Shown here piece by piece: positions 2-61,576 of a stretch of DNA of 64,000 bases (positions within the stretch are counted from its first letter, which is position 1; each line of letters opens with the position of its first letter). Source of the stretch: Vibrio sp. CDRSL-10 TSBA (GTDB taxonomy: Bacteria > Pseudomonadota > Gammaproteobacteria > Enterobacterales > Vibrionaceae). The notes under the pieces are model-generated. The model saw only the letters and a program-made list of their open reading frames with translations. It did no database searches and had not been told where the DNA came from. A program made the translations under genes and the position numbers. The stretch covers positions 496,001 to 560,000 of the forward strand of contig CP155565.1 of the NCBI GenBank assembly GCA_039696685.1. Direction: 5' to 3'.

Positions 2-1373
2 CACCGTCGTCCGGAACGTTTTGGCGGCGGCCGTTCAACCGGTCTTAAGCTGGTTGACCTAGATGCTGATAAATTGGGTGTCGAGAAGCCATCTGACTTT
101 AAATGGAATCAGCTGCTTGGCTTTGATGCCTGTGTTCAGTGCGGTAAATGTGAAGCTATGTGTCCTGCGTTCGCTGCAGGCCAGCCGCTGAACCCGAAGA
201 AACTGATCCAGGATATGGTGGTGGGCCTGGCTGGTGGTACTGATAAAAAGTACGCCGGTAGTCCATACCCGGGTAAAGAAGTTGGCTGTGCTCAGGGTGG
301 CGCGCATAACCCGATCGTTAACGGTCTGGTGAATTCCGAAACACTGTGGTCATGTACAACTTGTCGTGCCTGTGTGGAAGAGTGTCCGATGATGATCGAA
401 CACGTTGATGCCATCGTTGATATGCGTCGCTTCCTGACACTGGAAAAAGGTCAAACTCCAGAGAAGGGTGTTGAGGTACTAGAAAACCTTATCTATACCG
501 ATAACCCGAATGGTTATGCGCCGCAGCGCCGTTCACACTGGGCTGCTGACCAAGAGCTTAACCTGATGTCCGAAGTGAAACGCGCTGATGTGCTGTTCTG
601 GGTCTCTGATGGTGCGTTTGATATGCGTAGCCAACGCATTCTGAAAGCGTTCGTCAAAGTTCTGAAAGCAGCCAACATCGATGTCGCGATTCTGGGTGAC
701 GAAGAAACTTGACTGTGGTGATGTGGCGCGCCGTCTTGGTGATGATGCGACCTTCCAGCGTCTTGCTCGCCGTAACATTGAAACGTTAAGCAAGTACGAG
801 TTCAACTGCATTGTGACCACAGACCCGCACGCGTTCCATGTACTGAAGAACGAGTATCCGGATCTGTACCCTGAAGGCGAGAAGCCTCAGTACCAGGTTT
901 GGCACCATACAACGTTCATCAACCAGTTAGCTGAGAAAGGACTGATCCAATTGCGCGCTCATCAGGGTGGCAAAGTGACGTACCACGATCCTTGTTATCT
1001 GGGCCGTTACAATGGCGAATACGATTCTCCTCGTTCACTGCTGAAGCAGTTGGGCATCGAACTGGCTGAAATGGAACGTTCCGGATTCCGCTCACGTTGT
1101 TGTGGCGGCGGTGGTGCGGCTCCAATCACCGATATTCCGGGCGAACGCCGTATCGCAGATATGCGTATGGATGACATCCGTGAAACCGGTGCTGAATTGG
1201 TGGCTGTGGGTTGTCAGCAATGTACAGCGATGCTGGAAGGTGTGGTTGAACCACGTCCTGAAGTGAAAGATATCGCCGAGATTGTTGCCGAAGCATTGCT
1301 TGAAGGTGGAGCTGGATCCAGCGATAACGCTGCCCAGGTCTGGACACCTGACGCTGTTGCAGAAACCGTGTAG
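2..1373 (+). CDS. dgcB: Dimethylglycine dehydrogenase-type Fe-S oxidoreductase (DgcB), 5' truncated by window edge, frameshifted
   Basis: Membrane-associated Fe-S subunit that, with DgcA (not in the window), demethylates dimethylglycine to sarcosine and exchanges electrons with the ETF encoded next. The frame is open to the left edge, so the N-terminus is missing. Two 4Fe-4S motifs are visible, CVQCGKCEAMCP (from base 131) and CTTCRACVEECP (from 353). Cysteine-rich CCG-type elements with RCCGGGG and GCQQC lie near the C-terminus. The frame breaks at GAAAC 704-708; removing one A joins LGDEE to LDCGDVARRLG and gives at least 456 codons. The function is inferred from the etf pair directly downstream and the nearby gbcAB. 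A generic heterodisulfide-reductase-like protein is the alternative. Confidence 0.85.
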
Positions 1374-1382
1374 GAGATCAGC

Positions 1383-2621
1383 ATGAGTGAATTTATTGTC
1401 CGACGTGACCGTCGTGCAGAATGGATTATGCGCAACCGACTGCATCCCCAGCACGACAGTTACATTACTTTACCGACCGAAGAACGCGGACCTAGCGGCC
1501 TTATTCGCCGCTACCCGCACCGGGTAGGATTTATCGGCCCGAATGGCATCAAACGTATTGACCGCCTGAACGGCACTAATGTGTCAGCTATGGGGGCACG
1601 CAGCAAAGGCGCTGCTCAAGAAGTTGAGCTGCCACTGCATCAGGTGGCTAACCCGGACTTTTACGTTCTGGTGGTGCCGGATATGGCTGGTGGTCGTCTC
1701 TCGAGTCATGACCGTGACGTTCTGGGACAAGCGCACCAGTTGGTGAAACAACATGGTGGCAACGGCGCAGTGATGGCCGTTGTTCTGGGCTCACATCGTG
1801 AAACTCAGTTCGATACGGCAGGTGCTGACCGTCTTCTGCATTTGGAAGATGAACGCTTCGATGGTTACTGTCCTGAGCTGAAAGCCGATGTGCTGGCTCA
1901 GATTGATGGTCAGTTCGCGCCAAAGCATTGGTTGTTCCCGGACAGCATTGCCGGCGGCTTTGAACTGGGTGCGCGTCTGTCTGCACTGATTCACGAACGT
2001 CCCGCTACCCAGGCGTGGCAGGTCAACAGTGAAGAAAGTGTTTGCCGTGCAGCCGGTGGTCGTCACGATATCAAACGTAAAACACCACGCCTTCTGCTCC
2101 TGGCTGAAGAGTGTGCGGCTCAAATCGACGAAACGCGTCACGAAGCTCAGGCTGTGGAATTCAGTGCAGATCTTAAGCTCAAGGCGCAAATCGAAGACCT
2201 TGGTCCGATCGCGGTCGATCCGCAGGCGGTTCCTCTGGGTGAAGCGGAGTTCATTCTGTCGGCGGGTAACGGTATCCACGATTGGGAGCAGTTCCATAAA
2301 GCAGCCGAAGTACTCGGTGCCACTGAAGGTGCCAGCCGTGTGGCGGTCGATGATGGCTTTATGCCACGTAGCCGTCAGGTTGGTGCTACCGGTAGCTGGG
2401 TGACTGCACGCGTGTATGTCGCGGTAGGTATCAGCGGTGCGGTACAGCACCTGCAGGGTATCGGTGGCTGTGAAAAGGTGATTGCGGTCAACACAGACTC
2501 TGGTTGTGACATGGTCAAACGCGCTGATTTGAGCGTGATTGTCGACAGTAACGAACTGCTGGCAGAACTGATCACGCTGATGGAGAACTACCAAAAGGAG
2601 GAGCTGAAGGATGCAGCTTAG
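1383..2621 (+). CDS. etfA: Electron transfer flavoprotein alpha subunit of the dimethylglycine pathway
   Basis: FAD-binding ETF alpha subunit, 412 aa, cytoplasmic, paired with the next gene. The C-terminal FAD domain is clear: PRSRQVGATG (about residue 325), GISGAVQHLQG, then AVNTDSGCDMVKRADL, the normal order in ETF-alpha. The N-terminal 180 residues are longer and less typical than in housekeeping EtfA, as in the ETF that serves dimethylglycine/sarcosine catabolism. The start ATG follows AGGAGATCAGC, ten bases after dgcB stops, so it sits in the same operon. Its 3' end overlaps etfB by 11 bases, suggesting translational coupling. Confidence 0.88.
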   Translation: MSEFIVRRDRRAEWIMRNRLHPQHDSYITLPTEERGPSGLIRRYPHRVGFIGPNGIKRIDRLNGTNVSAMGARSKGAAQEVELPLHQVANPDFYVLVVPDMAGGRLSSHDRDVLGQAHQLVKQHGGNGAVMAVVLGSHRETQFDTAGADRLLHLEDERFDGYCPELKADVLAQIDGQFAPKHWLFPDSIAGGFELGARLSALIHERPATQAWQVNSEESVCRAAGGRHDIKRKTPRLLLLAEECAAQIDETRHEAQAVEFSADLKLKAQIEDLGPIAVDPQAVPLGEAEFILSAGNGIHDWEQFHKAAEVLGATEGASRVAVDDGFMPRSRQVGATGSWVTARVYVAVGISGAVQHLQGIGGCEKVIAVNTDSGCDMVKRADLSVIVDSNELLAELITLMENYQKEELKDAA

Positions 2622-3408
2622 AACTTCTGAATCATTAAATATCAGCACTCTGGTTTCGATTGGTGCGCATCCTGATTCCGGACGCGCACGTCGGGCGATG
2701 ACTGACTCGAGAGCTGTTGAGCTGGCGATGAATCTGGCGAACAGCAAACTGGAAGTAATCCATGCTGGTGACCCGCGCGATCCCGCGCTGGGTTACTACA
2801 GCGGCATGGGCCTAAGCCAAATCCGCGTACTTGCTCAGGAATCTAACGCTGATGCTATTGATACTCTGACCGAATATTTTACCGACAACATGCCCGACAT
2901 CCTGTTGACAGGCACTCGCGCTGAAAGCGGTGAATCTTCTGGTTTGTTGCCTTTCATTCTGGCTCAGCGTCTGCAATGTCCGGTCGTGACCGGCATTGCG
3001 GAAATCATCAAAGTTGAAGACGGAATCGCGGAAGTGCTGCAGGCACTGCCGCGAGGTCAGCGCCGCGCGCTTAAAGTGACGTTACCTTTTGTTGCAACAG
3101 TGGATGTTGCAGCCAAAGCGCCACGACAAAGTGCATTTGGTATTGCCCGTCGTGCAGAAATCGATGTCAGCAACAGCACTGTAAACACGATTGATGAAGA
3201 GCGAATCAGTTGGGAGGAAACTCCCGCTAAACCTAAAGCTAAACGAATGAAAGTCGTAAAAGCAAAAACAGCAGCGGACCGTTTTAAAGCGGCGACTGCA
3301 AAAGCTGCCTCTTCAGGCGGTCAGGTTATGAAAGATCAGCCTGTCAGTGAAATGGCGAAAGCGGTCTTCGACCTACTGTTAGAAGAAGGCGTTATACGCC
3401 AAAAATAA
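2611..3408 (+). CDS. etfB: Electron transfer flavoprotein beta subunit of the dimethylglycine pathway
   Basis: ETF beta subunit, 265 aa, partner of the preceding alpha subunit. The ETF domain spans residues 1-200 (SIGAHPDSGRARRAMTDS, LLTGTRAESGESSGLLP, PVVTGIAE, LPRGQRRALKVTLPFVATVD). It starts inside etfA behind AAGGAGGAGCTGAAGG, a strong ribosome site. After about residue 205 it carries a Lys/Ala-rich stretch (KPKAKRMKVVKAKTAADRF) before a conserved-looking C-terminal helix, longer than housekeeping EtfB. Last gene of dgcB-etfA-etfB; a hairpin without a T-run follows. Confidence 0.87.
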   Translation: MQLRTSESLNISTLVSIGAHPDSGRARRAMTDSRAVELAMNLANSKLEVIHAGDPRDPALGYYSGMGLSQIRVLAQESNADAIDTLTEYFTDNMPDILLTGTRAESGESSGLLPFILAQRLQCPVVTGIAEIIKVEDGIAEVLQALPRGQRRALKVTLPFVATVDVAAKAPRQSAFGIARRAEIDVSNSTVNTIDEERISWEETPAKPKAKRMKVVKAKTAADRFKAATAKAASSGGQVMKDQPVSEMAKAVFDLLLEEGVIRQK

Positions 3409-3411
3409 CCG

Positions 3412-3443
3412 TTCATTCGCGGTCACAGGAAGTACCGAATGAA
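3412..3443 (+). other. Inverted repeat between etfB and the betaine transporter gene
   Basis: Perfect 8-bp arms TTCATTCG and CGAATGAA around a 16-base loop, three bases after the etfB stop. There is no T-run, so it is not a standard intrinsic terminator. It may stabilise the upstream mRNA end or attenuate reading into the transporter gene 50 bases further on. Confidence 0.4.
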
Positions 3444-3493
3444 TTGGCCTTTAGGCGTGTTTAGAAGATTGATTAAATTCAAAGAGGGATCGA

Positions 3494-5096
3494 ATGAAAA
3501 CAATAGCAGGCTCTGCACCTAAGGGCCGCGCTAGTGTGTCGCGTGTCAAATATGACACCGACTACTGCGCGGGCCAGGACAATGTGAAAATCTGGGGAAT
3601 GGATATTCACAACCCGGTGTTTGGTATTAGTGTCGGATTAATTTTGTTGTTCATTATTCTGACACTTGCTTTCCCGGAAGGCGCAAAAGAGGTGCTGACT
3701 GTGGCACGGAAACTGGTCAATCGAGAACTTTGACTGGTTGTTCATGGTTGGCTGTAACCTGTTTGTCGTGTTTTGTCTGGCACTACTTGTTTTACCTGTT
3801 GGAAAAATCCGTATCGGTGGTGTGGATGCTCGTCCGGAGTTCTCGACACTTTCTTGGTTCAGCATGCTGTTTGCTGCCGGTATGGGTATTGGCCTGATGT
3901 TCTGGAGTGTGGCGGAACCGGTTGCTTACTACACCGATTGGTATGGTACGCCACTGAATGCCGCACCACTGACAGAGCAGGGTAAAGAGCTGGCTCTGAG
4001 TGCAACTATGTACCACTGGGGTCTGCATCCTTGGGCTATTTACGCCGTAGTCGGTCTGGCTTTGGCGTTTTTTGCTTATAACAAGGGGCTGCCTTTAACC
4101 ATTCGCTCGGTATTTTACCCAATCCTGGGCGAGCGTTGCTGGGGACCTATCGGTAACTTTATCGATATCCTGGCGGTTCTGGCGACTATTTTCGGTCTGG
4201 CAACATCATTGGGCCTGGGTGCGCAGCAAGCCGCTGGCGGCCTGAGTTACCTGATGGGGACCGAAAACAGTATTGAACTGCAGATCGGCTTCATCGTTGT
4301 GGTTACCTTGATTGCTATCATTTCGGTATCACGCGGATTGGACGGTGGCATCAAAATCCTGAGTAACATGAATATGTTACTTGCGGTTGCTTTGATTGCT
4401 CTGTTGATCGCGATCGGCCCGACACTGGCTATCGGTGACACTATCGGCACTATCGTCACCGGTTACGCAGATAACTTCCTGCCGCTGTCGAACTGGATTG
4501 GTCGTGAAGATGATACCTGGTTCCATGGCTGGACGGTGTTCTACTGGGCTTGGTGGGTTTCATGGTCACCATTTGTGGGTATGTTCATTGCCCGCGTGTC
4601 GAAAGGTCGTACTGTGCGGGAGTTCATTACCGCGGTATTGCTGGTTCCAACTTTGTTGACCGTTGTCTGGATGGGCGTGATGGGCGGAACTGCACTCGAC
4701 CAGGTGACTCACGGTGTGGGTGAACTATCGAATGGTATATCGGATGTGTCACAAGCTATGTTTCAGATGTTTGATAACTTAACGTTAACAAAGTTATTAT
4801 CAGTAATGGCGATTGTACTGGTTCTGTTGTTCTTCGTGACCTCATCTGACTCAGGTTCATTAGTCATCGACAGTATTACCGCTGGCGGTAAAACCGATGT
4901 ACCGGTTGCGCAGCGAGTGTTGTGGGCATCTCTGGAAGGGGTGATTGCAATAGCACTGTTGCTGGGTGGCGGTTCTGAGGCGTTAACTGCATTGCAGGCC
5001 GGCGCTATCACAACAGGGTTACCGTTTACTGTAGTACTGATCATTATGTGCTGGAGCTTGTACCGTGGCCTGTGTACAGAAAAACATCTGTACTAA
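3494..5096 (+). CDS. BCCT-family betaine/choline/carnitine transporter, frameshifted
   Basis: Sodium- or proton-coupled uptake system of the inner membrane with 12 predicted helices; the betaine-catabolism genes on both sides make betaine or dimethylglycine the likely substrate. Repaired length is 533 aa. Family marks: the first segment HNPVFGISVGLILLF, FAAGMGIGLMFWSVAEP, the substrate-box region WTVFYWAWWVSWSPFVGMFIAR, and SSDSGSLVIDS. The frame breaks at GAAAC 3709-3713; deleting one A gives VARNWSIENFDWLFMVG, the normal BCCT sequence between helices 1 and 2. The start ATG has AGAGGGAT upstream. The C-terminal tail is short, so no long osmosensing extension is present. Confidence 0.9.
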
Positions 5097-5113
5097 ACTG
5101 CTATAACTTAATT

Positions 5114-5137
5114 AAGCTGGCCGTGAGGCCAGCTTTT
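5114..5137 (+). terminator. Hairpin terminator after the BCCT gene
   Basis: Arms AAGCTGGCC and GGCCAGCTT around GTGA, followed by a short T stretch (TTGATT), 17 bases after the transporter stop. It separates the transporter from the next small gene. Confidence 0.7.
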
Positions 5138-5161
5138 GATTCACCAGGGAGAGAAAAATCA

Positions 5162-5410
5162 ATGATGTATGCAGAACTGATCGATATGGATGATTTTATG
5201 TTGGTGATGAAAAGACTAGGAATTACCACCGATGAACGACGTGACTTTGAGTACGTTACTTCCCGTATTGAGCAATGGCTGAATGAAGCAAGTGAAAAAG
5301 ACTCACGCGAATTTTGGCACACGATCGACGACATTGAAGAAGATGGCATTCTGTTGCCTGACGTCGAGAATATTATCCTTTGGAGTCGCAAACTGCCGAT
5401 GGCCAGCTAA
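5162..5410 (+). CDS. Conserved hypothetical acidic protein, 82 aa
   Basis: Not recognised as a named family. An 82-aa soluble acidic protein with no signal peptide or membrane segment; the middle (MKRLGITTDERRDFEYVTSRI) looks helical. Two ATG codons lie in tandem (5162 and 5165) behind the good ribosome site AGGGAGAG, and terminators sit on both sides. This suggests a genuine single-gene unit. Nothing links it to betaine metabolism apart from position. Confidence 0.6.
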   Translation: MMYAELIDMDDFMLVMKRLGITTDERRDFEYVTSRIEQWLNEASEKDSREFWHTIDDIEEDGILLPDVENIILWSRKLPMAS

Positions 5411-5431
5411 TATACGTTGTACGGAAAGTTG

Positions 5432-5464
5432 AGCCACGTTCTTGTCTGAGAGCGTGGCTTTTTA
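5432..5464 (+). terminator. Intrinsic terminator after the 82-aa gene
   Basis: Arms AGCCACG and CGTGGCT, extended by TTCT/AGAG-like pairs, followed by TTTTTAG. Ends the transcript of the 82-aa gene. Confidence 0.75.
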
Positions 5465-5465
5465 G

Positions 5466-6205
5466 TGACTGCCGCCAATATTTACTTCTGTCTGCTGTTT
5501 ACTGTCGTATGACGGTTTTCGGTACTTTGCACTTACACCTTGTTTCTGTCACATTCGTTGAATGTTGTTCTTTCAACTCATCCTGTTTCCTTATCAGCCG
5601 CCACATTGCTAATACGCCACCATTATTTTTAATCAGTTATCCCCTTCGTACTTGAAGCTGCAGCGGTGTTGGCTGCAACTCCAAGTTGTTTTGGGATATC
5701 ACATAACCTTTGTATCCAGTTATATATAACTTTGAGTGACGTTGTCACTAATTAAGGTTAAAAATTGGCTGTTCCAGAACGGTGAGCAAGTCAACCCATG
5801 CGTATCTGGTTACGCCCGGCAAGTGGTTCCGTGAAGCTGTGCAGATCGATGCGCAGGCTGCTTTTCCGAGCTAACGTGGCGCATACGATCCTGATGATGC
5901 GATTTGACCGCGCTTGGCGTCGTTTTTGCGTCCGCAGGACTGTGCCCAAGTTCAGGCCATTATGAGATGAATGTGAGCGGGCCAATGCACCTGTTACTAT
6001 CGCTTTGTTCATAATAGCTATTACATCGTTCATGATAATTATGACTTCGCTCAGATAGTTTACAGAGCATAGAAGGATGAATAGTGCTTAGGGAACAGAA
6101 CAGGAGCATGTAGTTTGGCTTTGTTTGATATCTGTGCGGCTGATTTTGTCGTGCAGGTTAATCTTGTGATTAAAAGGTCTCCTTGGAAAAACCTGCGGAT
6201 AAAAC
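5466..6205. other. 740-base stretch without a recognisable gene
   Basis: Holds the short ERIC-like hairpin at 5649-5698 and otherwise nothing I can name. A minus-strand open frame (5791-6033, 80 codons) is rich in Arg and resembles no family; composition between 5780 and 6000 is more GC-rich than the flanks, as if it were a decayed gene fragment. No promoter or RNA gene was identified. Confidence 0.4.
5649..5698 (+). repeat. Short ERIC-like hairpin repeat (internally deleted form)
   Basis: Begins TACTTGAAGCTGCAGCGGTG and folds back on GCTGCAACTCCAAGT, nearly complementary 15-base arms around a short GGTGTTG loop. The left 27 bases are identical to the left end of the repeat at 12612. The match to the ERIC end (reverse complement reads CAGCCAACACCGCTGCAGCT) is from memory. 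It appears to be an ERIC element lacking its central part. Confidence 0.65.
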
Positions 6206-6236
6206 AAGGCCCCGCATAGCGAGGCCTCAATATTTA
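6206..6236 (-). terminator. Terminator downstream of gbcA
   Basis: Read on the minus strand: arms AGGCCTCGC and GCGGGGCCT (one G-T pair) around TAT, then TGTTTTATCC. It lies 16 bases past the gbcA stop. Confidence 0.65.
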
Positions 6237-6251
6237 TCCTGACAGGTCGGC

Positions 6252-7521
6252 TTATTTGCCATCCAGGTTGGTCAGGATACGGTCTGAATACCAGTTCAGG
6301 AAGTCGATAACACCGAACTCGTAAGTTTTCGAGTAAGGGCCTGGCTGGTAGCTCAGAGAGTTGATACCGCGTTGGTTTTCTTCGCCCAGAATACGGTCCT
6401 GGTCATTGGTTGCATCCCAAACCTGACGCAGACGCTCTGGATCGTAATCCACGCCTTCTACTGCATCTTTATGGACGAACCATTTGGTAGTAACCATAGA
6501 TTCCTGAGCAGAGATAGGCAGCACGCGGAATACGATGAAGTGGTCGCTCTGCATGTGGTTCCATGAGTTAGGAAGGTGCAGAATACGCAGTGAACCAAGG
6601 TGACGGTTTCTGGATGCGGCCCAGAGTCTTAGCGCTACCCTGAGAGCCGTCGATGGTCATTACTTCTGTGCCTTCTTTCAGTGGCATACGAACCAGACGG
6701 TTACGTTTACCAAAGTTTTTGTGCTCGTGCGGAATGTTTTCGTCATCCCACTCTTTAGCCATGCGGGCACAGTAATCGAGGAATTCCTGAGAAGCACGCG
6801 GGTCAGTGGTGTCATCCCATTCCAGCAGTGTGTTCAGAAGCTCAGGGTGGCTACCGGCACAGTGGTAACACTCGCGGTTGTTTTCGATAACCAGCTTCCA
6901 GTTCGCCTTTTCATACATGTTAGACTCAACAGCCAGTTTGGTGTTTTCAACGTCGTAAGGAGCCATGTATTCGTCAAGCGTTGCCAGGAATTCATCGAAG
7001 TCTGAATCTGGTGCGTTTTCGCCCAGACAAACGAAGATGAAGCCGCCTGCGGTTTTACAATGTACGGAACGCAGTTTGTGGTCGCCGATGTTAAAGTCGT
7101 CACCCATTTCTGTACCTGCGTACAGAAGGTTACCTTTCGTGTTGTAAGTCCACTGGTGGTAAGGGCATACCAGGTTGGCAACTTTACCGCGGTGTTCTGT
7201 ACAGATACGAGAACCACGGTGACGACATGAGTTGTGGAAGGCGTTTACTGAACCATCAGCATCACGCACAATCAGTACTGGGCTTTGAGCAATTTCAACG
7301 GTGAAGTAATCGCCTTTTCCTGGAATTTCGCTTGTCATACCGACAAACAGCCACTCTTTTTGGAAGATTTCTTCAACATCAATACGGAACAAGAACGGGT
7401 CGTTATATAACGGACGTGGGAGTGAGTAATCCGGTTTACGGTCACTCAGTAGCTTGGTCATTTCAGTGCGAGCCATGTCCAGGTTCGCGTAGCTGATATT
7501 TAATAAGTCGTTTTGTGTCAT
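6252..7521 (-). CDS. gbcA: Glycine betaine monooxygenase oxygenase subunit (Rieske), frameshifted
   Basis: Rieske non-heme iron oxygenase that, with GbcB, demethylates glycine betaine to dimethylglycine plus formaldehyde. The N-terminal Rieske centre shows CRHRGSRICTE and CPYHQW (CxH...CxxH). The catalytic domain has NNRECYHCAGSHPEL with the expected iron-binding histidines. Repaired length is 422 aa, normal for the family. The frame breaks at GTTTC 6606-6610; removing one base joins LGRIQN to RHLGSLRILHLPNSWNHMQSDHF. Start chosen at the ATG of MTQNDLLN because the upstream 26 codons look non-coding. Divergent from gbcB across about 320 bases. Confidence 0.9.
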
Positions 7522-7839
7522 TGCTACTATCTTCTTCTCGGAATTGTGGGTAATACGCCCGAGTAGGGCTTCCTTGCTAATGACCCAACCCCAGCCCAAA
7601 ACAACAGGGAGCGAGTATGTGTCTGACCGTATCCTGCATCAATGTAAAAACCAGCAATAGTCTATTCACGACATTAAATGATGCTGTTTGAGACAAGCCC
7701 GAAAAAAAGCCGAAATTGGTGACTTTTTTAGACAACCCAATGTCGTAAACGGATAACTGCCTATTGCGTTATGGCTAAACAATACAGCCAACCCCAAGGA
7801 GGGATAATAACTATTCAAACCGTTGCGGAGATGCCGGAC
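7522..7839. promoter_or_regulatory. Shared gbcA-gbcB divergent promoter region
   Basis: About 320 bases separate the two divergent starts, so it should contain both promoters and any activator sites. In pseudomonads such genes respond to the AraC-family regulator GbdR; no GbdR-like gene is in this window and I cannot assign an operator. AAGGAGGG at 7796 is too far from the gbcB ATG chosen here, so a slightly earlier non-ATG start is possible. Confidence 0.45.
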
Positions 7840-8968
7840 ATGACTACTACGAATAATGCACTCGCCACTAGTGGCGCTTTTGTACCCGTTACGACACAGA
7901 CTTGGAGCAACGGCCGACACGTCGTCAGGTGTGTAAAGACGATTCAGGAGACGTGGGATACTAAAACCTTCTGTTTCATGGCTGAACAGCCAATAATGTT
8001 CTTCTTCAAGCCAGGTCAGTTTCGTGACGCTGGAATTAGAGATTGGCGGAGAGCAAATCTTCCGCTCTTATACGATCTCAAGTTCGCCATCCGTACCTTA
8101 CAGCTTCTCAATCACGGTAAAACGTGTTCCGGGTGGTTTCGTTTCAAACTGGATTCATGACAACATGGATGTGGGCACTGAGCTTGCAGTGCATGGTCCG
8201 GTTGGTGCGTTTAACAGTATTGATTTCCCGTCAGAAAAAGTTCTGCTTCTGTCTGGTGGTGTAGGTATTACTCCTTTGATGTCGATGGCTCGCTGGGCTT
8301 ACGATACCAATACCGATGTTGATGTCGCTTTCGTACACAGTGCACGTACACCGCGTGACCTGATCTTCCATCGTGAACTTGAGTTCATGTCATCCCGTAT
8401 CTCTAACTTCCATTTGCATTTGATTTGTGAGCGTCTGGAATCCGGCCAAAACTGGTCTGGTTACCGCGGTTATCTTGATGAAGCAAAACTGAAGATGATG
8501 GCGCCGGACTTTATGGAGCGAGAAGTGTTCTGTTGTGGTCCGACACCGTACATGAGAGCGGTTAAGAGCATGCTGGAAAACCTTGGCTTTGACATGGATC
8601 GTTACCATGAAGAAGCGTTCGGTCCGACTCCTGAGGCAGTCGAGGAGCAGGTTGTTCACGATGCAGAAGTTGCTGCTGAAGAAGCAGATGCCATTCTGCC
8701 AAGTGACATGATTGAAGTTGTGTTTACCAACAGCGACAAGTGTGTACAAATTGCCCCGGGTGAAACTGTTCACGCAGCTGCCGCTAAAGCGGGTCTTACT
8801 ATTCCTAAAGCGTGTGGTATGGGTATCTGTGGTACCTGTAAAGTTAAGAAAGTCAGCGGTAGCGTCGAAATGGCCCACAACGGTGGTATCACCGATGAGG
8901 ATGTCGAAGACGGATACATCCTGTCTTGCTGTAGTATTCCGAACGACAACGTCGTTGTTGAATACTAA
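7840..8968 (+). CDS. gbcB: Glycine betaine monooxygenase reductase subunit (FAD / 2Fe-2S), frameshifted
   Basis: Supplies electrons from NAD(P)H to GbcA. Domains in order: FAD-binding ferredoxin-reductase fold with RSYTISSSP (about residues 75-83); NAD-binding with LLSGGVGITPLMSMA and FCCGPTPYM; C-terminal plant-type ferredoxin with CGMGICGTCKV and a distal CCS, giving four ligand cysteines. Repaired length 375 aa. The frame breaks at GTTTC 8019-8023; removing one T gives KPGQFVTLELEIGGEQ. ATG at 7840 was chosen because GGAG lies nine bases upstream; an earlier ATG at 7831 is also possible. Confidence 0.9.
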
Positions 8969-8995
8969 GGAAAGTCACAGACACTGAGTCATAAT

Positions 8996-9029
8996 AAACA
9001 CCCGGTTGCAGCAATGTAGCTGGGTGTTT
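8996..9029 (+). terminator. Hairpin after gbcB
   Basis: Arms AAACACCC and GGGTGTTT around an 18-base loop that is itself partly paired. The T stretch is short, so it may be a weak terminator. Confidence 0.5.
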
Positions 9030-10228: not shown

Positions 10229-10241
10229 TGAGAAGAATAAT

Positions 10242-12552: not shown

Positions 12553-12565
12553 ATGGTCAGATGAT

Positions 12566-12595: not shown

Positions 12596-12611
12596 CCGAC
12601 TAACCGCTTTC

Positions 12612-46567: not shown

Positions 46568-46579
46568 ATTTCCGCGTTG

Positions 46580-49078: not shown

Positions 49079-49085
49079 AAAAAAG

Positions 49086-49105: not shown

Positions 49106-49121
49106 AACTATAGAGGTTCGT

Positions 49122-50292: not shown

Positions 50293-50353
50293 GCCGTTAC
50301 CCAACCATAAAATCCATTTGGTTATATAACGGCGTATTTTCCATTAACTTTAG

Positions 50354-51232: not shown

Positions 51233-51234
51233 TG

Positions 51235-53345: not shown

Positions 53346-53430
53346 AGGTTTACAAAACTATATCGTATTATCCGAAAAAGATACATTTACCGTGTTATAT
53401 TGCTGTCAATAATGCATAGATCACAAACAA

Positions 53431-53455
53431 AGAAGCCAGCTAAATGCTGGCTTCT
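53431..53455. terminator. Terminator between pntB and vxrA
   Basis: Arms AGAAGCCAGC and GCTGGCTTCT around TAAAT, with short T-runs on both sides. It ends the pntAB transcript. Confidence 0.82.
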
Positions 53456-53493
53456 CTATTAAATGCAGGATTTTTACCCGCATGGTGTATGGT

Positions 53494-54871
53494 TTATAGT
53501 GCGCGTGAGATAGCGTCAACACTCTCTTTTGCATCACCAAACAACATATGTGTGTTGTCTTTAAAGAACAGAGGGTTCTGCACACCGGCGTAACCTGTGT
53601 TCATCGAACGCTTAAACACGATGACATTCTTCGCATTCCAGACTTCCAGAAACCGGCATGCCGGCAATCGGGCTGTTTGGATCTTCTTGTGCCGCCGGGT
53701 TAACCGTGTCGTTAGCACCGATAACCAGTACTGTGTCTGTCTCGCTGAAATCGTCGTTGATTTCATCCATTTCCAGTACGATGTCATACGGTACTTTGGC
53801 TTCTGCCAGCAGTACGTTCATGTGACCAGGCAGACGCCCCGCAACCGGGTGAATACCAAAGCGGACTTCAACACCCAGTGCGCGAAGTTTTTCGGTAATC
53901 TCATGCACCGGATACTGAGCCTGAGCCACTGCCATACCGTACCCAGGAGTAATGATGACTGACGTTGAGTTTTTCAACATGTCCGCCACATCTTCAGCGT
54001 TGATTTCACGGTGTTCACCCTGCTCTTCATCACTGCTGATCACCACGTCCTGACCAAAGCCACCGGCAATGACACTGATGAACGAACGGTTCATCGCTTT
54101 ACACATGATGTAGGACAGAATCGCACCGGAAGAACCAACCAGCGCTCCGGTTACGATCAACAGGTCGTTGGCCAGCATGAAACCTGCCGCGGCCGCCGCC
54201 CAACCCGAGTAAGAGTTCAGCATAGAAACCACAACCGGCATATCCGCACCACCAATCGATGCCACCAGATGGTAACCAAACGCAAACGCGATAAGTGTCA
54301 TCACGATCAGTGCAAACATGCTGCCGTCAGCATTCACAAACTGAACCATCAGCAGTGTAGAAACAACCACAGCCGCCAGGTTAAGCTTATGTTTGTGCGG
54401 CAGGTTGAGCGGAGATGACTTAATCAGACCACGCAGTTTACCAAATGCCACGATGGAACCCGTGAACGTCACTGCACCGATGAATACACCCAGGAAGACT
54501 TCAACCAGGTGAATCACGTGCTCGGCATGAGTCGCAACTTCAGGTGCGTCCAGGTAGCTGTTATAGCCAACCAGAACCGCCGCCATACCAACGAAGCTGT
54601 GCAGAATCGCAACCAGCTCCGGCATTTCGGTCATTTCCACTTTTTTTGCAAAGTGGATACCGATCGCACCACCAATCAGCATTGCGATGATAATCCAGAC
54701 AAAACCCTCAGAACCCGGACTGAAAATAGTCGCTAGAAGCGCTATGGTCATACCGGCGATACCGTAGTAGTTACCGGATTTGGCTGATTCCTGTTTAGAC
54801 AGTCCAGCCAGACTTAAAATGAAAAACAGAGCAGCAACAATGTAGGCCGCCTGTACTAATCCTGCAGACAT
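53494..54871 (-). CDS. pntB: NAD(P) transhydrogenase beta subunit, frameshifted
   Basis: Repaired 458 aa. Nine helices (for example [49 protein letters not shown]) then the NADP-binding dIII domain: [52 protein letters not shown]. The frame breaks at GAAAC 53649-53653; repair gives [21 protein letters not shown]. Couples proton flow to hydride transfer between NADH and NADP+. Follows pntA after 11 bases. Confidence 0.93.
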
Positions 54872-54882
54872 TGTGTACTCCC

Positions 54883-56430
54883 TTAATTTTTACGGAACAT
54901 TTCAAGCATACGTTTGGTCACGGTAAAGCCACCAAAGATGTTGATACTGGCAATCAAGACGGCGATAAACGCCAGGAAAGTCACCACGCCATTACCCTGC
55001 CCGATTTGCAGCAGTGCGCCCACAACGATGATGCCCGAAATCGCATTGGTTACCGACATCAGAGGTGTATGCAGAGCATGGGTAACGTTCCAGACCACGT
55101 AGTAACCCACGACACAGGCCAGAACGAATACGGTAAAGTGCCCAAGGAATGCAGCCGGGGCCACTGAGGCGATCCACGCAAACGCACCCACGCCAACCGC
55201 GAGACCAACCAGTTTTTTCACCGGAGAGACAGGTTCAGACTCTTTTTTTTCGGCTTTAGGCTGGGCTTTTGGCTTTTGTTGTGGCTGAGCAGAAACCTGA
55301 ATCGGCGGTGCCGGCCAGGTGATTTCACCATCTTTGACCACGGTGACGCCGCGCACAACCACATCTTCAAAATCGATGTTGATATTGCCGTCTTTTTCTT
55401 TGCACAGCAGTTTCAGCAAGTTAACCAAGTTAGTTGCGAAAAGTTGAGAAGATTGCGTTGGCAGACGACCCACCATATCGGTATAGCCGATCACTTTAAC
55501 GCCATTCGGGGTAACGAATACCTGGTCTTTGACTGTGTATTCACAGTTACCGCCGTTCGCTGCCGCCAAATCGACAATCACGCTGCCCGGTTTCATGCTG
55601 TCGACCATCTCTTTGGTCACCAGTTTTGGCGCAGGTTTGCCCGGGATAAGCGCAGTGGTAATAATGATGTCGACATCTTTCGCCTGAGCCGCATACAGTT
55701 CAGCCGCTTTACGGTTGAAATCATCCGACATCTCCTTGGCGTAACCGTCACCTGAACCGGAGTTTTCCTGATAATCAAGTTCCAGGAACTCAGCACCCAT
55801 TGACTGAACCTGCTCTTTTACTTCAGGTCGAACGTCGAAAGCACGTACGATAGCACCCAGGCTACCTGCCGCACCGATGGCAGCCAAACCAGCAACACCG
55901 GCACCGGCGACAAATACTTTCGCTGGCGGTACTTTACCCGCCGCGGTAATCTGACCGGTAAAGAAGCGACCAAATTCATGCGCCGCTTCCACCACCGCAC
56001 GATAACCGGCGATGTTGGCCATTGAAGAGAGAGCGTCCAATGCCTGAGCGCGAGAAATACGTGGTACGCAATCCATCGCCATGACATTGATACTTTTCAC
56101 GGTCAGTTTTTCCATCAGCTCTGCATTTTGTGCAGGCCAGATAAAGCTGACCAGTGTGGCGCCTTCCTTAAGCAAAGCAATCTCGTCGACGCTGTCGTCG
56201 CTAAGCGGTGCATTGACTTTCAGGATGATGTCCGATTGCCAGGCTTCATCTTTAGTCACTACTTTTGCACCAGCAGCTTCGAATGCAGAATCTTCAAAAC
56301 TTGCCAATTCCCCTGCCTGAGATTCGACAACGACCTCAAAACCTAGCTTGATTAACTGTTCAACCGACGATGGTGAAGCAGCGACTCGCGTTTCCCCTGC
56401 GAGTATTTCCTTTGGTACACCAATTTGCAT
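54883..56430 (-). CDS. pntA: NAD(P) transhydrogenase alpha subunit
   Basis: 515 aa, intact. NAD-binding dI domain: [59 protein letters not shown]. The C-terminal four helices belong to the membrane domain. First gene of pntAB; both reading frames agree with the V. cholerae arrangement beside vxrA. Confidence 0.95.
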
Positions 56431-56659
56431 AGCTTATCCTTGACTATTGGCACAATGAATATTCTTTTTTTATCTAACGACTGACCTAACTTCAAGCTAT
56501 TTGTTATATAAATACAAAGTGTTATTTCATATAACGTCAGGTATTAAAAAGATGTGATTGACTCTACACCGATAGCAACTTCACCGACAACTTGGCAGAG
56601 GCGGAACCAGTATAAGCATATCCATCTGTAAACTGGAATTTGCAATGTGCTCAAAAAAC

Positions 56660-56695
56660 AAAAGAGCCACCAGCATATCGACTAATGGCTCTTTT
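56660..56695. terminator. Bidirectional terminator downstream of hlyU
   Basis: Arms AAAAGAGCCA and TGGCTCTTTT around 16 bases. Terminates the HlyU-type gene. Confidence 0.85.
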
Positions 56696-56724
56696 ATTTA
56701 TGATTTCTGTCAATGACTTGAGGG

Positions 56725-57003
56725 TTAGGAGAAGATATTACCGCTCATTTGATCGATGAACATCTGCGCTTTTTTCAGCATCAGTTCTTTGGCATCTTCT
56801 TTACTTGGCAGAACATCGGAACGAATGAAACGATGGGTTTTCAGTTCACCGTCTATTTCTTTGGTAATCCGGCCGGCGATACGATATTGGCCGCCTTCCG
56901 CCTGTGGCTCCTGATAAATAAGAAAGCCTTTGTATTCGACAGGCTGGACAACTTCAATTTGGTTCTCTGACTTACCGCCAAACAAACGAGAAAACAATCC
57001 CAC
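56725..57003 (-). CDS. HlyU-family protein
   Basis: 92 aa, MGLFSRLFGGKSENQIEVVQ, then VEYKGFLIYQEPQAEGGQYRIAG and SKEDAKELMLKKAQMFIDQM: the pattern of the short HlyU (PF10115) proteins, not the ArsR-type HlyU. Role unknown; annotated as transcriptional activator by family name only. Confidence 0.72.
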   Translation of the reverse strand: MGLFSRLFGGKSENQIEVVQPVEYKGFLIYQEPQAEGGQYRIAGRITKEIDGELKTHRFIRSDVLPSKEDAKELMLKKAQMFIDQMSGNIFS

Positions 57004-57130
57004 AATTACTCCTTTGGCTCATGCATTTTGTGATTGATATCGGGGCGAATGAAACGCAAGCGTAGATGCAACACAGCTTTGTTATTCATAGCTGTCGTTA
57101 CTGACTAACCTTAATGACCTGGCAGCCGGT

Positions 57131-57502
57131 TTAAACATCCGGTTTCGGATGACGCAATATCGGTTTTTCATACCATTCGAGTTCTGCGTCTTCATCGAAG
57201 TGCGTTTGCGTCATCACCACCGGCACATCATCACGGTTTTTACGTCGATCATCAAGGATCATTGATTCCGCTGCCTGAACGGCAGTTTCTGCCCTTGTCT
57301 TCAGCGTCAATAAGCGGGTTTCCGGTAGTGCCGCAAGAAAATCGATGTCGTGGCGAATGTAGATAGGTCGGATCTGGCTCAAAGCCAGACAGGCCAAGTC
57401 AGCCAGCTGTTCGTTGTTGTATTGCCGGGTATAATGCTCTTCTGCCAAAACATGGCCCACCAGCACTTCCATATAATTGTGCACATCAACACTGATTTGC
57501 AT
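57131..57502 (-). CDS. ComFB-domain protein
   Basis: 123 aa. NYMEVLVGHVLAEEHYTRQY and LACLALSQIRPIYIRHDIDFL are ComFB marks. Cyanobacterial ComFB-type proteins bind c-di-GMP, so a c-di-GMP receptor role is possible here, next to diguanylate cyclases. The start is ATG 57502 behind GGAGTGG; an earlier ATG lies eight codons upstream. Confidence 0.75.
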   Translation of the reverse strand: MQISVDVHNYMEVLVGHVLAEEHYTRQYNNEQLADLACLALSQIRPIYIRHDIDFLAALPETRLLTLKTRAETAVQAAESMILDDRRKNRDDVPVVMTQTHFDEDAELEWYEKPILRHPKPDV

Positions 57503-57729
57503 GTTTCCACTCCTGATCTTGAACAATCGTGGCCATAACGCCCCGATTCATGATTTTCAACTTAACGTGCCTTGTACTGACACACAAGCATTGCTGATAA
57601 TTTCGCCTTTAATCTATGGCTTGACGCTCGGTTTATAAGATAAGTTTAGCAAAAAGCTTGGAAAATCATTAAATAGAAGTATCCTAGCGATCATAATAAT
57701 TTTTAAACTATCAATAGTCACCGTTGAGC

Positions 57730-58987
57730 ATGACATCGAGTTTAGTTAACTCTTATTGGTTTCGCTTTTTCTTTCCAATCGCATTGCTGTGCGCCCTGTG
57801 GCTGGGAATGAATAACGTTATTTTGCTCACCCGCGCCAACTTTGGTTTCGCGGGTAGCTTGCCCTACGTCTTATTTATCACCGCCATTGCTATTGCACAG
57901 CTGTTTAAGCAAAGCCGGATCGGTATGATCGCCAGTGCGATGATGCTGGGTTACTGGATCATCCAGACCCGTTTGCAAACCTCTCTCGATCACGGTTTCT
58001 GCGTTACTTGAACTCTCTTTGCTGGCTACTCTGCTGCCTGTTGCGTGTCTGCTGGCGTACACCTTTAAAAATACCGGATTAGTCAGTCGGGGCTTTACGC
58101 TTTATCTGGCGATATTAGTCATGTTTTTAGGCTGGAGCGGCCTGATCCTGACCCAGTATCAAGCCGGTGAGTTTAGCCTGGGCGGTGGGGATGGGATTTT
58201 GTTTGCCCTGCCGAGCATTTCAAAACTGCCGTTTATTGTTGTTCTCTATCTCTTGGCACTGACCGGTCTGACCGGAATCTTTGTGCTGACCCGTAACCAC
58301 CTGATGGATGTGGTTGTCTATAGCGCTATCTTGCTTGCCAGTAATACCTTTATCTTTTTCCAGGTTCAGTTTATCTCCTGCACCATGTTTTCCCTGGCAG
58401 GAATTCTGCTAATTCTTCATCTGCTGTCCGCCAGTCATGAGATGGCGTTTATTGATCGTCTGACCCAACTTCCCGGCCGTCAGGCGCTTGATCTTGATAT
58501 GCGTCATCTGCATGGCAATTTTGCTGTCGCGATGATCGATGTGGACCACTTCAAAAAGTTCAATGACACCTATGGACACGATACCGGCGATGATGTGCTG
58601 AAACTGGTCGCCAGTCGCCTGAGTTTAATTCAGAACAAAGCACGGGTATATCGTTACGGGGGCGAGGAGTTTACCGTGGTGTTCAAAGGCAAAAGAGCCC
58701 GCGATGCGATGGAGTATCTGGAATTATTGCGCTCCGATATTGCCCAGTATGATTTAGTCCTGCGAAATCTGACTGCTCGCCCGAAAGACGATAAAGACGG
58801 AGCTAAACACCGTAAAGGCGTAAAAAGTCAATCCGTCAATGTTACTGTAAGTATTGGCGTGTGTCACAGCGCGCAGCAATCCGACCCGTTTGCAGCATTA
58901 AAGCTGGCCGACAACGCTCTGTATAAAGCCAAACAGTCGGGACGTAATTGCGTTAAAAGCGCCGGACCCAAGGTGCATCACTCCTGA
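57730..58987 (+). CDS. Membrane diguanylate cyclase with GGEEF domain, frameshifted
   Basis: Repaired 418 aa. Seven or so N-terminal helices to about residue 235 form a sensory domain, then GGDEF with FAVAMIDVDHFKKFNDTYGH, signature loop YRYGGEEFTVVF, and SIGVCHSAQQSDPFAALKLADNALYKAKQSGRN. Activity expected. The frame breaks at GTTTC 57995-57999; repair gives SLDHGSALLELSLLATLL. TTG 57724 would add two residues. Its 3' end overlaps the convergent next gene by ten bases. Confidence 0.85.
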
Positions 58988-59871
58988 TTAAAGAACAGGA
59001 CAATACTGCCGCCTTTAAACGCACTGCCGTAATTCAGAGAGAGCCCGATCCCCACATTATCGATCCAATCACTTTTAAACGGCGGTGTCATCAACCAGCC
59101 AAAACCGTAGAAATAATGCCAGGATGAAGACACAGACCACCGGCCCCAACTTTGTGGCGACTCGTACTTGAGTCTGATATGCGGCTCTAGCACAGCCGCC
59201 CAGGCACTGGTATTAAAAATAAGATCGTCAAGAAACGGCTGAAACAACTGCCCGGTCGGACTGTGGTAATCAACGCTATTTTGATAATACATCAGATGAT
59301 GGCCGATCCCCGGCTCCAGCGACCAATGCTGATCAAAATGATGCCTGACCCGATATGCGCTATAGAGATCAACCAATGTCTGATGAAAATCGTCATGGGG
59401 CTCGCCGTCGACAAACTGGATCGTTTCATCACTCAGTGTCCCCGATAAACGCAATAAGACACTGTGTTGATTCACTGCATCCTCCTCACTCAGTTCAAAC
59501 GTATACGGCCATGAAGCGACCGCGTACGTTTTCCGGTTGTCGAGCGAAGTTTCGGTCCCCCAGTCTTCATTCTCGGTATTGAGAATCTCATTTGGGTTAA
59601 AATCACTGATGCCAACGGTAAACACTTCGCTGTCACTCAATACGACCGTAGCAGCAAAGTTATTCTCAAGAAACTTTTCAATAAAAGCGTAGCCTGCGTG
59701 CACCGGTAATGAGAACAGGCCTGAGAATGCCACCGCGATGACAGATTTTTTGGTTGCTGCGACACCGTTTTTAGTTGCGGCGACGCAGTTTTTAGTTACG
59801 GCGACACAGTTTTTTCCCGTGATAGCTGAGTTTTCACCTGAGATAGATGAGTTTTTACCAATGCTGCGCAT
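58978..59871 (-). CDS. Outer-membrane autotransporter-like beta-barrel protein with repeat-rich N-terminus
   Basis: 297 aa. SVIAVAFSGLFSLPVHA is the signal segment, preceded by about 40 residues made partly of a 7-residue repeat (KNCVAVT, KNCVAAT, KNGVAAT). The remainder is a 12-strand-like barrel (SWHYFYGFGWLMTPPF, NYGSAFKGGSIVLFF) and fits the solitary autotransporter-type family of vibrios (DUF3233-like). The start is uncertain because of the extension. Confidence 0.65.
   Translation of the reverse strand: MRSIGKNSSISGENSAITGKNCVAVTKNCVAATKNGVAATKKSVIAVAFSGLFSLPVHAGYAFIEKFLENNFAATVVLSDSEVFTVGISDFNPNEILNTENEDWGTETSLDNRKTYAVASWPYTFELSEEDAVNQHSVLLRLSGTLSDETIQFVDGEPHDDFHQTLVDLYSAYRVRHHFDQHWSLEPGIGHHLMYYQNSVDYHSPTGQLFQPFLDDLIFNTSAWAAVLEPHIRLKYESPQSWGRWSVSSSWHYFYGFGWLMTPPFKSDWIDNVGIGLSLNYGSAFKGGSIVLFFNQE
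59740..59823 (-). repeat. 21-bp tandem repeat in the N-terminal coding part of the barrel gene
   Basis: About four 21-base units starting GACA/GACG at 59740, 59761, 59782 and 59803, with the shared element GTTTTTAGTTGCGGC-like. The unit length preserves the reading frame. Confidence 0.75.
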
Positions 59872-60125
59872 GCGTTCATGTTGTTATTGTGCCATACCTA
59901 AAACCTATATCAGCCAGGATAAGTGCAGCGGAAATTCTGGTAAATTTATGCTTTCTATCACTAATTTGATAGCAATCTCGGCGCACAATGGCGCAATTGC
60001 AGTTGTCGCAATACAATAAATGAGCACAGAGAGTGTCAGATCATCATCGGGTAACAGAATCTCTGTAAATCCCTTGTAGTCGCGTATCAATGTGAACCGA
60101 ATTAGACCAATGCCAAGGAGGCTAT

Positions 60126-61576
60126 TTGGCTGTTAATCAAGAGGCGCTTGCCAAGTTTGGCCCCCTGATTCGTACCAGTTGGGTTTCGTCCCTTGTTAGT
60201 GGCAATCATCTGGTTAGTGTTATGGAGAGCAGCATCACTGATGGAATACGAGCCTCACGCCAGTATTTGGTTTCCACCGGCAGGCGTGACCTTTGCTATT
60301 TTCCTGGTGCTGGGTTGGTCGTACCTGCCGGTTTTGATCGCCTGCTGTATCGGATCAACATTCTGGGAAGACAGTTTGTATGGCTCACATCAGACCATTT
60401 CTACCCTCATCTCGACCGGTTTGCTGTTTGCCGCCATTCACAGCTGCTCCTACTGGGTCGGTGCTACTATTCTCAAACGATTCAATGAGCGCAGCGGTTA
60501 TCTGAAAGTCCCGCATCTGATCTTAATTTTTCTTTTGGTTGCGGTGCTCTCCTCGGTATTAGCCGCCCTTGGCGGTTCCTCTGCGCTGGCTTTGACCGGC
60601 ATTATTACCAGTGAGGAAATCACTTCGTTATGGGTGCCATGGTGGATAGGCGATTTGATTGGCGTTGTGGTCATCACGCCGATTATTGTCAGTCTGCTTG
60701 GCGGTATTTACCCGGAAGAAGGCCGCTGGCTGACTCAGTATTTTAAACCGCTGATCACTAATGCGCCGCCGGGACAATTTCTGCTCAAGCTCGCCACTTC
60801 TATGGTGATTTTAACGGTAATTAGCCTGCTTGTTGCCTACTATCCGTCGTCCCATATTGTGTTTACGGTTTTTTTCCTCGGTATTGCCCAGATGTGGATT
60901 GTATTTACCGAAACGGCAACCCGCTCATTTCTTAGTCTTGCTCTGCTCAGTACCCTGACCGCGCTGCTGATTGCCTGGCTTGGATTGTCTGAGAAAGCGT
61001 TGGTGTATCAGTTCACTATTTATCTGCTGGCGGCAAACACCTACTTCGGATTATGGGTGCCGCATATTCTGGTCGATAATCAGAAACTGCGCCGTTTATC
61101 AGAGCAGGACATGTTGACTGAAGTGGAAAGTCGCGGCTATTTCATTCGTAATGCCAAAGAGGAAATCGTACGCGCCAAGCGCTACAACCAACCCGTTTCT
61201 TTACTACTGTTTGATGTCGATAATTTTAAAGCCATCAATGATACCTATGGCCATATTGTCGGTGACAAGGTGTTAACCAATGTCGCACGCTTAGTGGATG
61301 AAACCATCCGGGCATCTGATAAGGTTGGCCGCTTTGGCGGCGATGAATTTATGGTACTACTGCCAGGCGATAACGAACAACAGGCATTACTGCTGGCAGA
61401 GCGCCTGCGCCACGCTGTTGCCTGCACAGATTTCGAAGAGCTCGATTGCCCCGTCACCTGTAGTTTTGGTGTGGCTGAAGTGCAAGAGAAACGATACGTT
61501 CAGCACCGCGTTTGAGCAGGCGGATAACTGTTTGCTGGAAGCAAAACGCGCCGGACGCAATCAGGTTAACGCCTGA
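60126..61576 (+). CDS. Diguanylate cyclase with MASE1 membrane domain, two frameshifts
   Basis: Repaired 482 aa. MASE1 domain with eight helices: SIWFPPAGVTFAIFLVLGWS, GSTFWEDSLYG, LWVPWWIGDLIGVVVITPII, then GGDEF with LFDVDNFKAINDTYGH, loop RFGGDEFMVLL, ACTDFEELDCPVTCSFGVAE. The frame breaks at GTTTC 60183-60187 and GAAAC 61488-61492; repair gives TSWVRPLLVAIIWL and EVQENDTFSTAFEQADN. TTG 60126 was chosen because AAGGAGG lies eight bases before it. Activity expected. Confidence 0.85.

What the first reader, a model, noticed from the sequence alone, without database searches (positions are those of the whole stretch)
704..61492. All 26 frameshifts in the window are the same change: GAAC read as GAAAC (or GTTC as GTTTC)
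Seen directly: conserved genes are interrupted at + strand GAAAC/GTTTC positions 704, 3709, 6606, 8019, 9853, 12193, 18936, 20127, 22171, 23659, 25411, 26591, 30254, 32272, 33908, 36155, 41148, 42352, 44149, 44924, 49794, 51561, 53649, 57995, 60183 and 61488. Removing one A/T at each restores a known family motif (for example REPGSGTR, VARNWSIENFDW, KPGQFVTLELE), and every repaired span then divides by three. No frameshift of another kind was found. Ordinary homopolymer errors should favour long runs, but runs of six or seven A/T inside genes are intact, and many GAAC tetramers are unaffected. The uniform motif is not expected by chance. It may reveal a motif-dependent base-calling or polishing error, perhaps linked to a modified base, or an unknown mutational process.
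Basis: partly seen in the sequence, partly recalled or inferred. Interest (0 to 1): 0.85.

Follow-up and report, generated by a model that had tools for sequence, protein, structure and literature searches.

The report
Sulfur-marked DNA sites misread
The broken genes are almost certainly sequencing errors, but the errors fall at the short word that the cell's own DNA-sulfur-marking machinery probably targets, so the genome record seems to carry an accidental map of a chemical mark.

Summary
All 26 coordinates begin GAAAC/GTTTC. A motif-blind frameshift model ranks GAAAC first among pentamers at insertion-type frame changes: 87 of 107 in 464 kb of this genome, background 7%. Six relatives without DndC gave 1 of 18. 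24 of 26 sites have separate support; 44924 and 60183 are unresolved.

The changes are not real: rpoB and rpoC are broken the same way. The motif is sense in 54 and antisense in 53 of 107 sites, which argues against programmed frameshifting.

The genome encodes DndBCDE and DndFGH. Its DndC is 68% identical to that of E. coli B7A, reported to carry phosphorothioates at GpsAAC/GpsTTC on 12% of sites (PMC4515589). Best explanation: long-read base calling adds an A/T at heavily phosphorothioated GAAC/GTTC. In support: 4-5% of coding GAAC affected, flank bias, few gaps under 500 bp (3 of 131; 19 expected), and recurrence in one (G156) of nine other dnd+ genomes sampled, whose own dndC is split at GTTTC.

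Reads, platform and chemistry could not be tested.

The parts
1..64000 (.). Stretch of a Vibrio-like chromosome (contig of 1.50 Mb) with frame changes at GAAAC/GTTTC about every 2.4 kb, at the coordinates listed in the finding
   Evidence: 26 of 26 are GAAAC/GTTTC, 24 of 26 supported as frame changes; mean gap of the listed sites
7732..8968 (+). FAD/NAD-binding, 2Fe-2S oxidoreductase gene whose family match begins mid-domain in the downstream frame
   Evidence: open frames; FAD_binding_6 match starts at profile position 35 at nt ~8021; no Pfam match for the upstream piece
23195..24827 (-). Two overlapping ORFs, frame change at GTTTC
   Evidence: ORFs; extra base against 12 of 12 relatives; HMM call
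25303..26914 (+). Region with two frame changes at GAAAC
   Evidence: Extra base against 18 of 18 and 18 of 18 relatives; HMM calls at both
30742..32379 (+). SgrR-like regulator; frame change at GAAAC near its 3' end
   Evidence: NF010149 match ends at 473 of 552; HMM call
49122..50304 (-). Two overlapping ORFs, frame change at GTTTC
   Evidence: ORFs; HMM call; extra base against 28 of 33 relatives, cluster wide
51533..51931 (-). Short ORF beside the VxrA-like kinase gene; frame change at GAAAC
   Evidence: Extra base against 50 of 55 relatives; VxrA family hit for the neighbouring gene
53612..54871 (-). ORF beside pntA; frame change near its 3' end
   Evidence: Extra base against 80 of 80 relatives; the neighbour 54883-56430 is PntA
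60169..61515 (+). MASE1-GGDEF protein; the GGDEF match is cut off where the frame changes
   Evidence: GGDEF match ends at 134 of 161 at nt ~61488; the directed HMM recovered that listed site

Best explanation
The frame changes are errors of the assembly, not of the organism. The cell carries a Dnd system (DndBCDE, with DndFGH) that replaces a backbone oxygen by sulfur between G and A (or G and T) at a subset of GAAC/GTTC sites. On native DNA read by an error-prone long-read method, most probably nanopore, the altered signal at heavily modified sites makes the base caller and consensus report one extra A/T, giving GAAAC/GTTTC. The listed sites would then be an unintended partial map of the most heavily phosphorothioated sites. 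Shown: the motif, the insertion sign, reach across the sampled genome, broken rpoB and rpoC, presence of dnd genes, flank bias, spacing, one replicate. Inferred: sulfur in this DNA, the platform, and the signal-to-insertion step.
For: Motif found blind: 87 of 107 insertion-type against 2 of 31 deletion-type calls. With one uniform setting: own genome 100 of 132 insertion calls near GAAAC; seven relatives with no DndC over cut-off 1 of 28 (DndC status). Own dndBCDE and dndFGH; DndC/B/E 68/66/64% and DndD pieces 53 and 58% identical to E. coli B7A, against 37-39% for the DndC of two other subtypes. B7A is reported to carry PT at GpsAAC/GpsTTC on 12% of sites (PMC4515589, passages). Nanopore reads show errors at PT GAAC/GTTC in Salmonella, 3.9-4.4% of motifs (PMC9069010, Results part 1); here 4.1-4.6% of coding GAAC, a lower bound. 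Bias against T at -1 (6% vs 38%) and A at +1 (8% vs 31%), repeated in 400 kb of further sequence, overlaps the A/C at -1 and T/G at +1 rule reported for PT (PMC9521924). Sites avoid each other within 500 bp (3 of 131 gaps, 19.0 expected), which local base-calling context alone would not give. rpoB and rpoC broken at the motif. Sense:antisense 54:53, all codon phases. A second species with the same Dnd subtype, G156: 9 of 21 insertion calls near GAAAC, p 8.6e-7 (11 of 21 within 15 bp); its dndC and dnd-linked methyltransferase are split with GTTTC and GAAAC at the junctions.
Against: No reads, platform record or chemistry were available. Eight other dnd+ genomes sampled lack the signature: G119, G161, G189, G157, G134, G181 together 1 of 20 insertion calls near GAAAC in 60 kb each, G497 and G520 0 of 15 each. 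G157 and G161 have the same Dnd subtype; polishing or another platform is assumed, not shown, and 60 kb excludes a density like the window's but hardly one like that of G156. G156 was chosen because it has DndC and its dndC lay in pieces, so the link to dnd rests on a biased pick. Unpolished dnd-negative genomes were not available as a group; only G013 (few contigs, two PurL matches) was sampled, 0 of 7 near GAAAC. PT flank rules disagree in print: none in B7A (PMC6459556, passage) and none in vitro (PMC4515589). PT patterns are reported to vary from molecule to molecule (PMC8053081), whereas a consensus error needs most reads affected. Methylation hybrids at GAAC are discussed in print (PMC9069010) and the locus has a dnd-linked methyltransferase.
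Confidence: 0.85

Rival explanations
1. A base methylation (for instance by the dnd-linked methyltransferase or another methylase) at GAAC, alone or together with sulfur, disturbs base calling.
For: A dnd-associated putative methyltransferase lies in the locus (TIGR04096); modification, methylation included, is a known cause of motif-bound nanopore errors (PMC10687267, passages); hybrid PT/6mA marks are discussed in PMC9069010.
Against: Ordinary methylases mark nearly all copies of a strict motif (established knowledge); here even the best flank class has 15% affected, and sites keep apart over hundreds of bases, which a methylase plus local signal would not produce.
Confidence: 0.09
2. Ordinary systematic long-read error at GAAC, unrelated to any modification.
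For: Unpolished long-read assemblies have indels; both genomes with the signature have two contigs. G156 was picked from dnd+ genomes, so the co-occurrence with dnd is partly by choice.
Against: Homopolymer errors should favour long runs and both signs (established knowledge); here one pentamer and one sign, most GAAC unaffected, spacing non-random. In a PurL scan that did not look at dnd, the genomes with ten contigs or fewer and more than one match were G000, G156 and G013; the first two are dnd+ and have the signature, G013 has no DndC over cut-off and lacks it.
Confidence: 0.04
3. Real insertions from a mutational process, perhaps sulfur-linked.
For: Uniform motif; dnd genes present.
Against: rpoB and rpoC could not be lost; same-subtype dnd+ relatives G157 and G161 gave 0 of 6 and 0 of 4; G156 would have broken its own dndC.
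Confidence: 0.01
4. Real sequence read by programmed ribosomal frameshifting, as recalled from some ciliates.
For: Would explain survival with rpoB and rpoC split.
Against: The motif is as often antisense as sense (54:53) and in every codon phase; relatives lack the extra base at the nine sites compared.
Confidence: 0.005

Closest known systems
Modification-mediated errors in nanopore assemblies (PMC10687267, passages seen)
   Same: Recurrent consensus errors bound to one short motif in genomes with an uncommon modification system
   Different: There mismatches at GCAGC/GCTGG, indels not the source; here one-base insertions at GAAC, and a backbone modification is the likely cause
Nanopore detection of phosphorothioates by read errors in Salmonella (PMC9069010; abstract, Results part 1, Discussion seen)
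   Same: GAAC/GTTC, Dnd system, about 4% of motifs
   Different: There read-level error odds against amplified DNA; here insertions fixed in an assembly, seen without reads
DndBCDE-DndFGH systems of E. coli B7A and Salmonella Cerro 87
   Same: Dnd gene set; 64-68% identity of DndB, DndC and DndE to B7A; GAAC word
   Different: Vibrio-like host, with a dnd-linked methyltransferase and a DpdB-like gene in the region; Cerro 87 proteins were not compared; the modification itself is not shown

Membership tests
Dnd phosphorothioation system, GAAC type | DndC, DndD, DndE (with DndB) encoded together | tested here: met
   DndB 481 bits (cut-off 328), DndC 550 (290), DndE 87 (71.9); DndD in two pieces of 247 and 235 bits (cut-off 245.9)
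Dnd phosphorothioation system, GAAC type | Marks fall on GAAC/GTTC | tested here: inconclusive
   The assembly errors fall there; the mark itself was not measured
Dnd phosphorothioation system, GAAC type | Only a small part of GAAC/GTTC is marked | tested here: inconclusive
   4.1-4.6% of coding GAAC bear the error, a lower bound for marking if the reading is right
Dnd phosphorothioation system, GAAC type | Sulfur in DNA, lost without dndC | not testable with these tools
   Needs iodine cleavage or mass spectrometry, and a dndC removal
DndFGH restriction partner | DndF, DndG, DndH encoded | tested here: met
   DndF 706 bits, DndG 585, DndH 2058 and 505 in two pieces
Modification-mediated nanopore errors | Recurrent consensus error at one motif | tested here: met
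   87 of 107 insertion calls near GAAAC; deletion of 31
Modification-mediated nanopore errors | Sequenced by nanopore on native DNA; cured by amplification | not testable with these tools
   The assembly is unnamed; two contigs and 95.9% completeness are only suggestive
Programmed frameshifting | Motif on the sense strand in a fixed codon phase | tested here: not met
   54 sense, 53 antisense, all phases at 3.3-5.3% of GAAC

The most novel reading that the evidence does not exclude
The errors are a readable record of where Dnd marks most cells, and they show two rules of target choice: T before and A after GAAC are avoided, and strongly marked sites are rarely closer than about half a kilobase, with an excess of 2-3 kb gaps. 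That would mean the Dnd complex spaces its marks along DNA rather than choosing each site independently, and that unpolished assemblies can be mined for phosphorothioate maps.
Probability: 0.45. Interest if true: 0.75.

Novelty: new variant of a known kind. Interest (0 to 1): 0.62.

Why it matters
If true, some gene breaks in public long-read genomes of dnd+ bacteria are not mutations but traces of a backbone modification. Such genomes would be wrong in a predictable way (in this window about every 2.4 kb, elsewhere in rpoB and rpoC), and the same errors would give PT maps from assemblies without reads. How Dnd picks about a tenth of its short targets is called a mystery in PMC9521924 (Discussion); the spacing and flank statistics give testable rules. 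Among the listings of my searches I saw no paper whose title or abstract reports phosphorothioate-caused insertions in assemblies; subscription papers and preprints are mostly not held.

Tried and rejected
An early note said the genome's dndC was broken; that was wrong (two HMM domains in one open frame) and is corrected in my second note. Exact search of a 31-base window piece in genome contigs found nothing. One-base gaps in DNA alignments at about 70% identity are noisy: many clusters away from the listed sites reach half of the relatives, some nearly all (for example a 200-bp-wide cluster near 53.37 kb, 39 of 41), mostly with a compensating opposite gap; I rely on them only at the nine covered sites, of which 49794 is wide and 57995 has 23 of 29. 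Directed HMM calls with 11 control pentamers gave 12-33 calls each against 136 for GAAAC; since a control pentamer near a true site can borrow its signal, only the 107 of 136 sites also called blind were used for flanks and spacing. The overall evenness of gaps is weak (simulations with a CV as low as observed: 7.2% for the HMM set, 1.9%); it is the lack of short gaps that stands out. HMM power for close pairs was tested on artificial text, 40 trials per distance: both of a pair found in 82-100% from 100 to 1000 bp; real genes may be harder. PurL in 196 genus genomes: more than one match in nine (G000, G001, G013, G054, G074, G112, G133, G156, G185), of which G000, G013 and G156 have ten contigs or fewer; I did not check that each extra match is a break. 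DnaE is intact. 204 of 5426 E. coli genomes carry a dndC relative, but I did not look for the signature there. A class-wide DndC search found 8 of 369 over cut-off, the own genome included; two others (G497, G520) were sampled, no signature. Real mutation, programmed frameshifting and plain homopolymer error were rejected for the reasons given under the rivals.
Full report
What was checked. The window is 64 kb of a two-contig, 4.90 Mb genome. Among the 80 best loci kept from genome contigs, its PntA is nearest to Vibrio species (90 and 89% protein identity); 24 of the 40 relatives drawn are of the same genus. Every one of the 26 coordinates begins a GAAAC or GTTTC.

Motif-blind test. I trained a three-periodic Markov model on long ORFs and ran a Viterbi search for frame switches that knows no motif. 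In the window it gave 14 insertion-type switches, each within 12 bp of a listed site, and 3 deletion-type switches near none. Over the window plus 20 stretches of 20 kb from the same genome it gave 107 insertion-type and 31 deletion-type switches; 87 of the 107 lie within 15 bp of GAAAC (background 6.9%, p about 3e-81), 2 of the 31 do, and GAAAC is the top pentamer; at a looser setting 106 of 149 and 3 of 52. The deletion-type calls are enriched for AAGGA/AGGAG, which looks like overlapping gene starts. Six relatives without DndC (400 kb) gave 18 insertion calls, 1 near GAAAC, or 2 of 29 at the looser setting. Of the 107, 6 have no GAAAC within 40 bp. In a contiguous 504 kb at a looser setting without the frame filter, 121 of 188 insertion calls are within 15 bp and 139 within 40 bp.

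Relatives. Nine listed sites are covered by at least three fetched relatives; the window has one base more than 12/12, 18/18, 18/18, 8/9, 14/14, 28/33, 50/55, 80/80 and 23/29 of them. A directed HMM recovers 21 of 26 listed sites, relatives add two and a Pfam boundary adds 8019: 24 of 26. Sites 44924 and 60183 stay open.

Not real, not translational. RpoC is read in two frames (profile 1-680 and 679-1146) with a GTTTC at the junction. RpoB is read in two frames as well: its profile match runs 1-346 in one frame and 345-1238 in the other, switching at L150:3498-3503, where a GAAAC starts at 3500 (the blind HMM had placed this switch at 3481). Both are essential in bacteria (established knowledge), and the RpoC search found no second copy. 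The motif is sense in 54 and antisense in 53 of 107 sites and falls in all codon phases at 3.3-5.3% of GAAC. So the frame changes arise in reading the DNA, not in the cell and not on the ribosome.

The modification system. The genome has DndC, DndB, DndD (two pieces), DndE, a dnd-linked putative methyltransferase, and DndF, DndG, DndH (two pieces) in one 20 kb region. A GTTTC lies near the DndD break (L003:11449; the HMM call is at 11435) and GTTTC/GAAAC lie in the DndH overlap. DndC is 68%, DndB 66%, DndE 64% and the DndD pieces 53 and 58% identical to E. coli B7A, against 37-39% for the DndC of two other subtypes. PT at GpsAAC/GpsTTC with 12% of sites marked is reported for B7A (PMC4515589, passages) and for Salmonella Cerro 87 (PMC9521924, Results). 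Nanopore reads make errors at PT GAAC/GTTC (PMC9069010, Results part 1 and Discussion).

Quantitative fit. 107 sites against 2529 unaffected coding GAAC is 4.1%; the contiguous set gives 4.6%. Both are lower bounds, because only coding sites can be seen and HMM recall is partial. At the sites, A at -1 is 50% (18% in GAAC at large), T at -1 is 6% (38%), A at +1 is 8% (31%); in 400 kb of further sequence the figures are 46/19, 8/38 and 12/33%. PMC9521924 reports A or C at -1, T or G at +1, and G+C-rich surroundings for PT sites; the avoidance of T at -1 and A at +1 agrees, the tolerance of G at -1 and C at +1 here does not. PMC6459556 saw no flank consensus at high-frequency sites in B7A (passage) and PMC4515589 none in vitro. 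Part of the flank bias may belong to the base caller.

Spacing. In 504 kb, 3 of 131 gaps between sites are under 500 bp (19.0 expected from flank-weighted draws among coding GAAC) and 31 lie at 2-3 kb (16.6 expected). The earlier, partly overlapping sample gave 4 of 86 gaps under 1 kb against 26.5% expected. The HMM finds both of a close pair in 82-100% of artificial cases, so blindness is an unlikely cause. A purely local signal effect would not create exclusion over hundreds of bases; a modification laid down sparsely would. PMC8053081 reports PT distances mostly of 1.5-10 kb on single Cerro 87 molecules, with strong variation between molecules and some close clusters on a plasmid.

Replication. 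Of 196 genus genomes, 29 have DndC over cut-off. G156 was picked because it is one of them and its dndC lay in pieces. It is a different species (76% DNA identity at pntA) with the same Dnd subtype and shows the signature blind: 9 of 21 insertion calls near GAAAC, top pentamer, p 8.6e-7. Its dndC and its dnd-linked methyltransferase are split with GTTTC and GAAAC at the junctions; a genuine dndC break would abolish PT. A recount with one setting gives insertion calls within 15 bp of GAAAC: G000 100 of 132, G156 11 of 21; dnd+ G119 0 of 0, G161 0 of 4, G189 1 of 4, G157 0 of 6, G134 0 of 4, G181 0 of 2; without DndC over cut-off G013 0 of 7, G005 0 of 4, G017 0 of 6, G007 1 of 2, G023 0 of 5, G011 0 of 2, G021 0 of 2. 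G497 and G520 (dnd+, other subtypes) gave 0 of 15 each within 12 bp. G157 and G161 share the Dnd subtype. So dnd alone does not predict the signature, which fits errors of particular assemblies, but their sequencing history is unknown.

Conclusion. Sulfur, platform and causality by dndC remain to be shown.

Noticed in passing
L003:9036-10187 (own genome, C2): A DpdB-like gene (87 bits) lies between the dndH and dndE ORFs, so a second modification-type gene may be part of the island.
   Followed up: no
L003:15514-17541: Dnd-associated putative methyltransferase (TIGR04096, 709 bits) beside dndB; present and split in G156 too.
   Followed up: partly
window 44924-46507: AIPR-family protein (Pfam 93 bits; weak match to MzaE of the MZA anti-phage system), a possible defence gene.
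   Followed up: no
window 51870-53345: VxrA-like sensor kinase (879 bits), a few kb from pntA.
   Followed up: no
genome G000: Listed completeness 95.9% and contamination 4.55% (99-100% complete in most same-genus genomes listed) may be affected by the split genes.
   Followed up: no
L086, L092, L098, L100, L101: Six insertion-type frame switches without GAAAC within 40 bp; some look like gene junctions, the rest are unexplained.
   Followed up: partly
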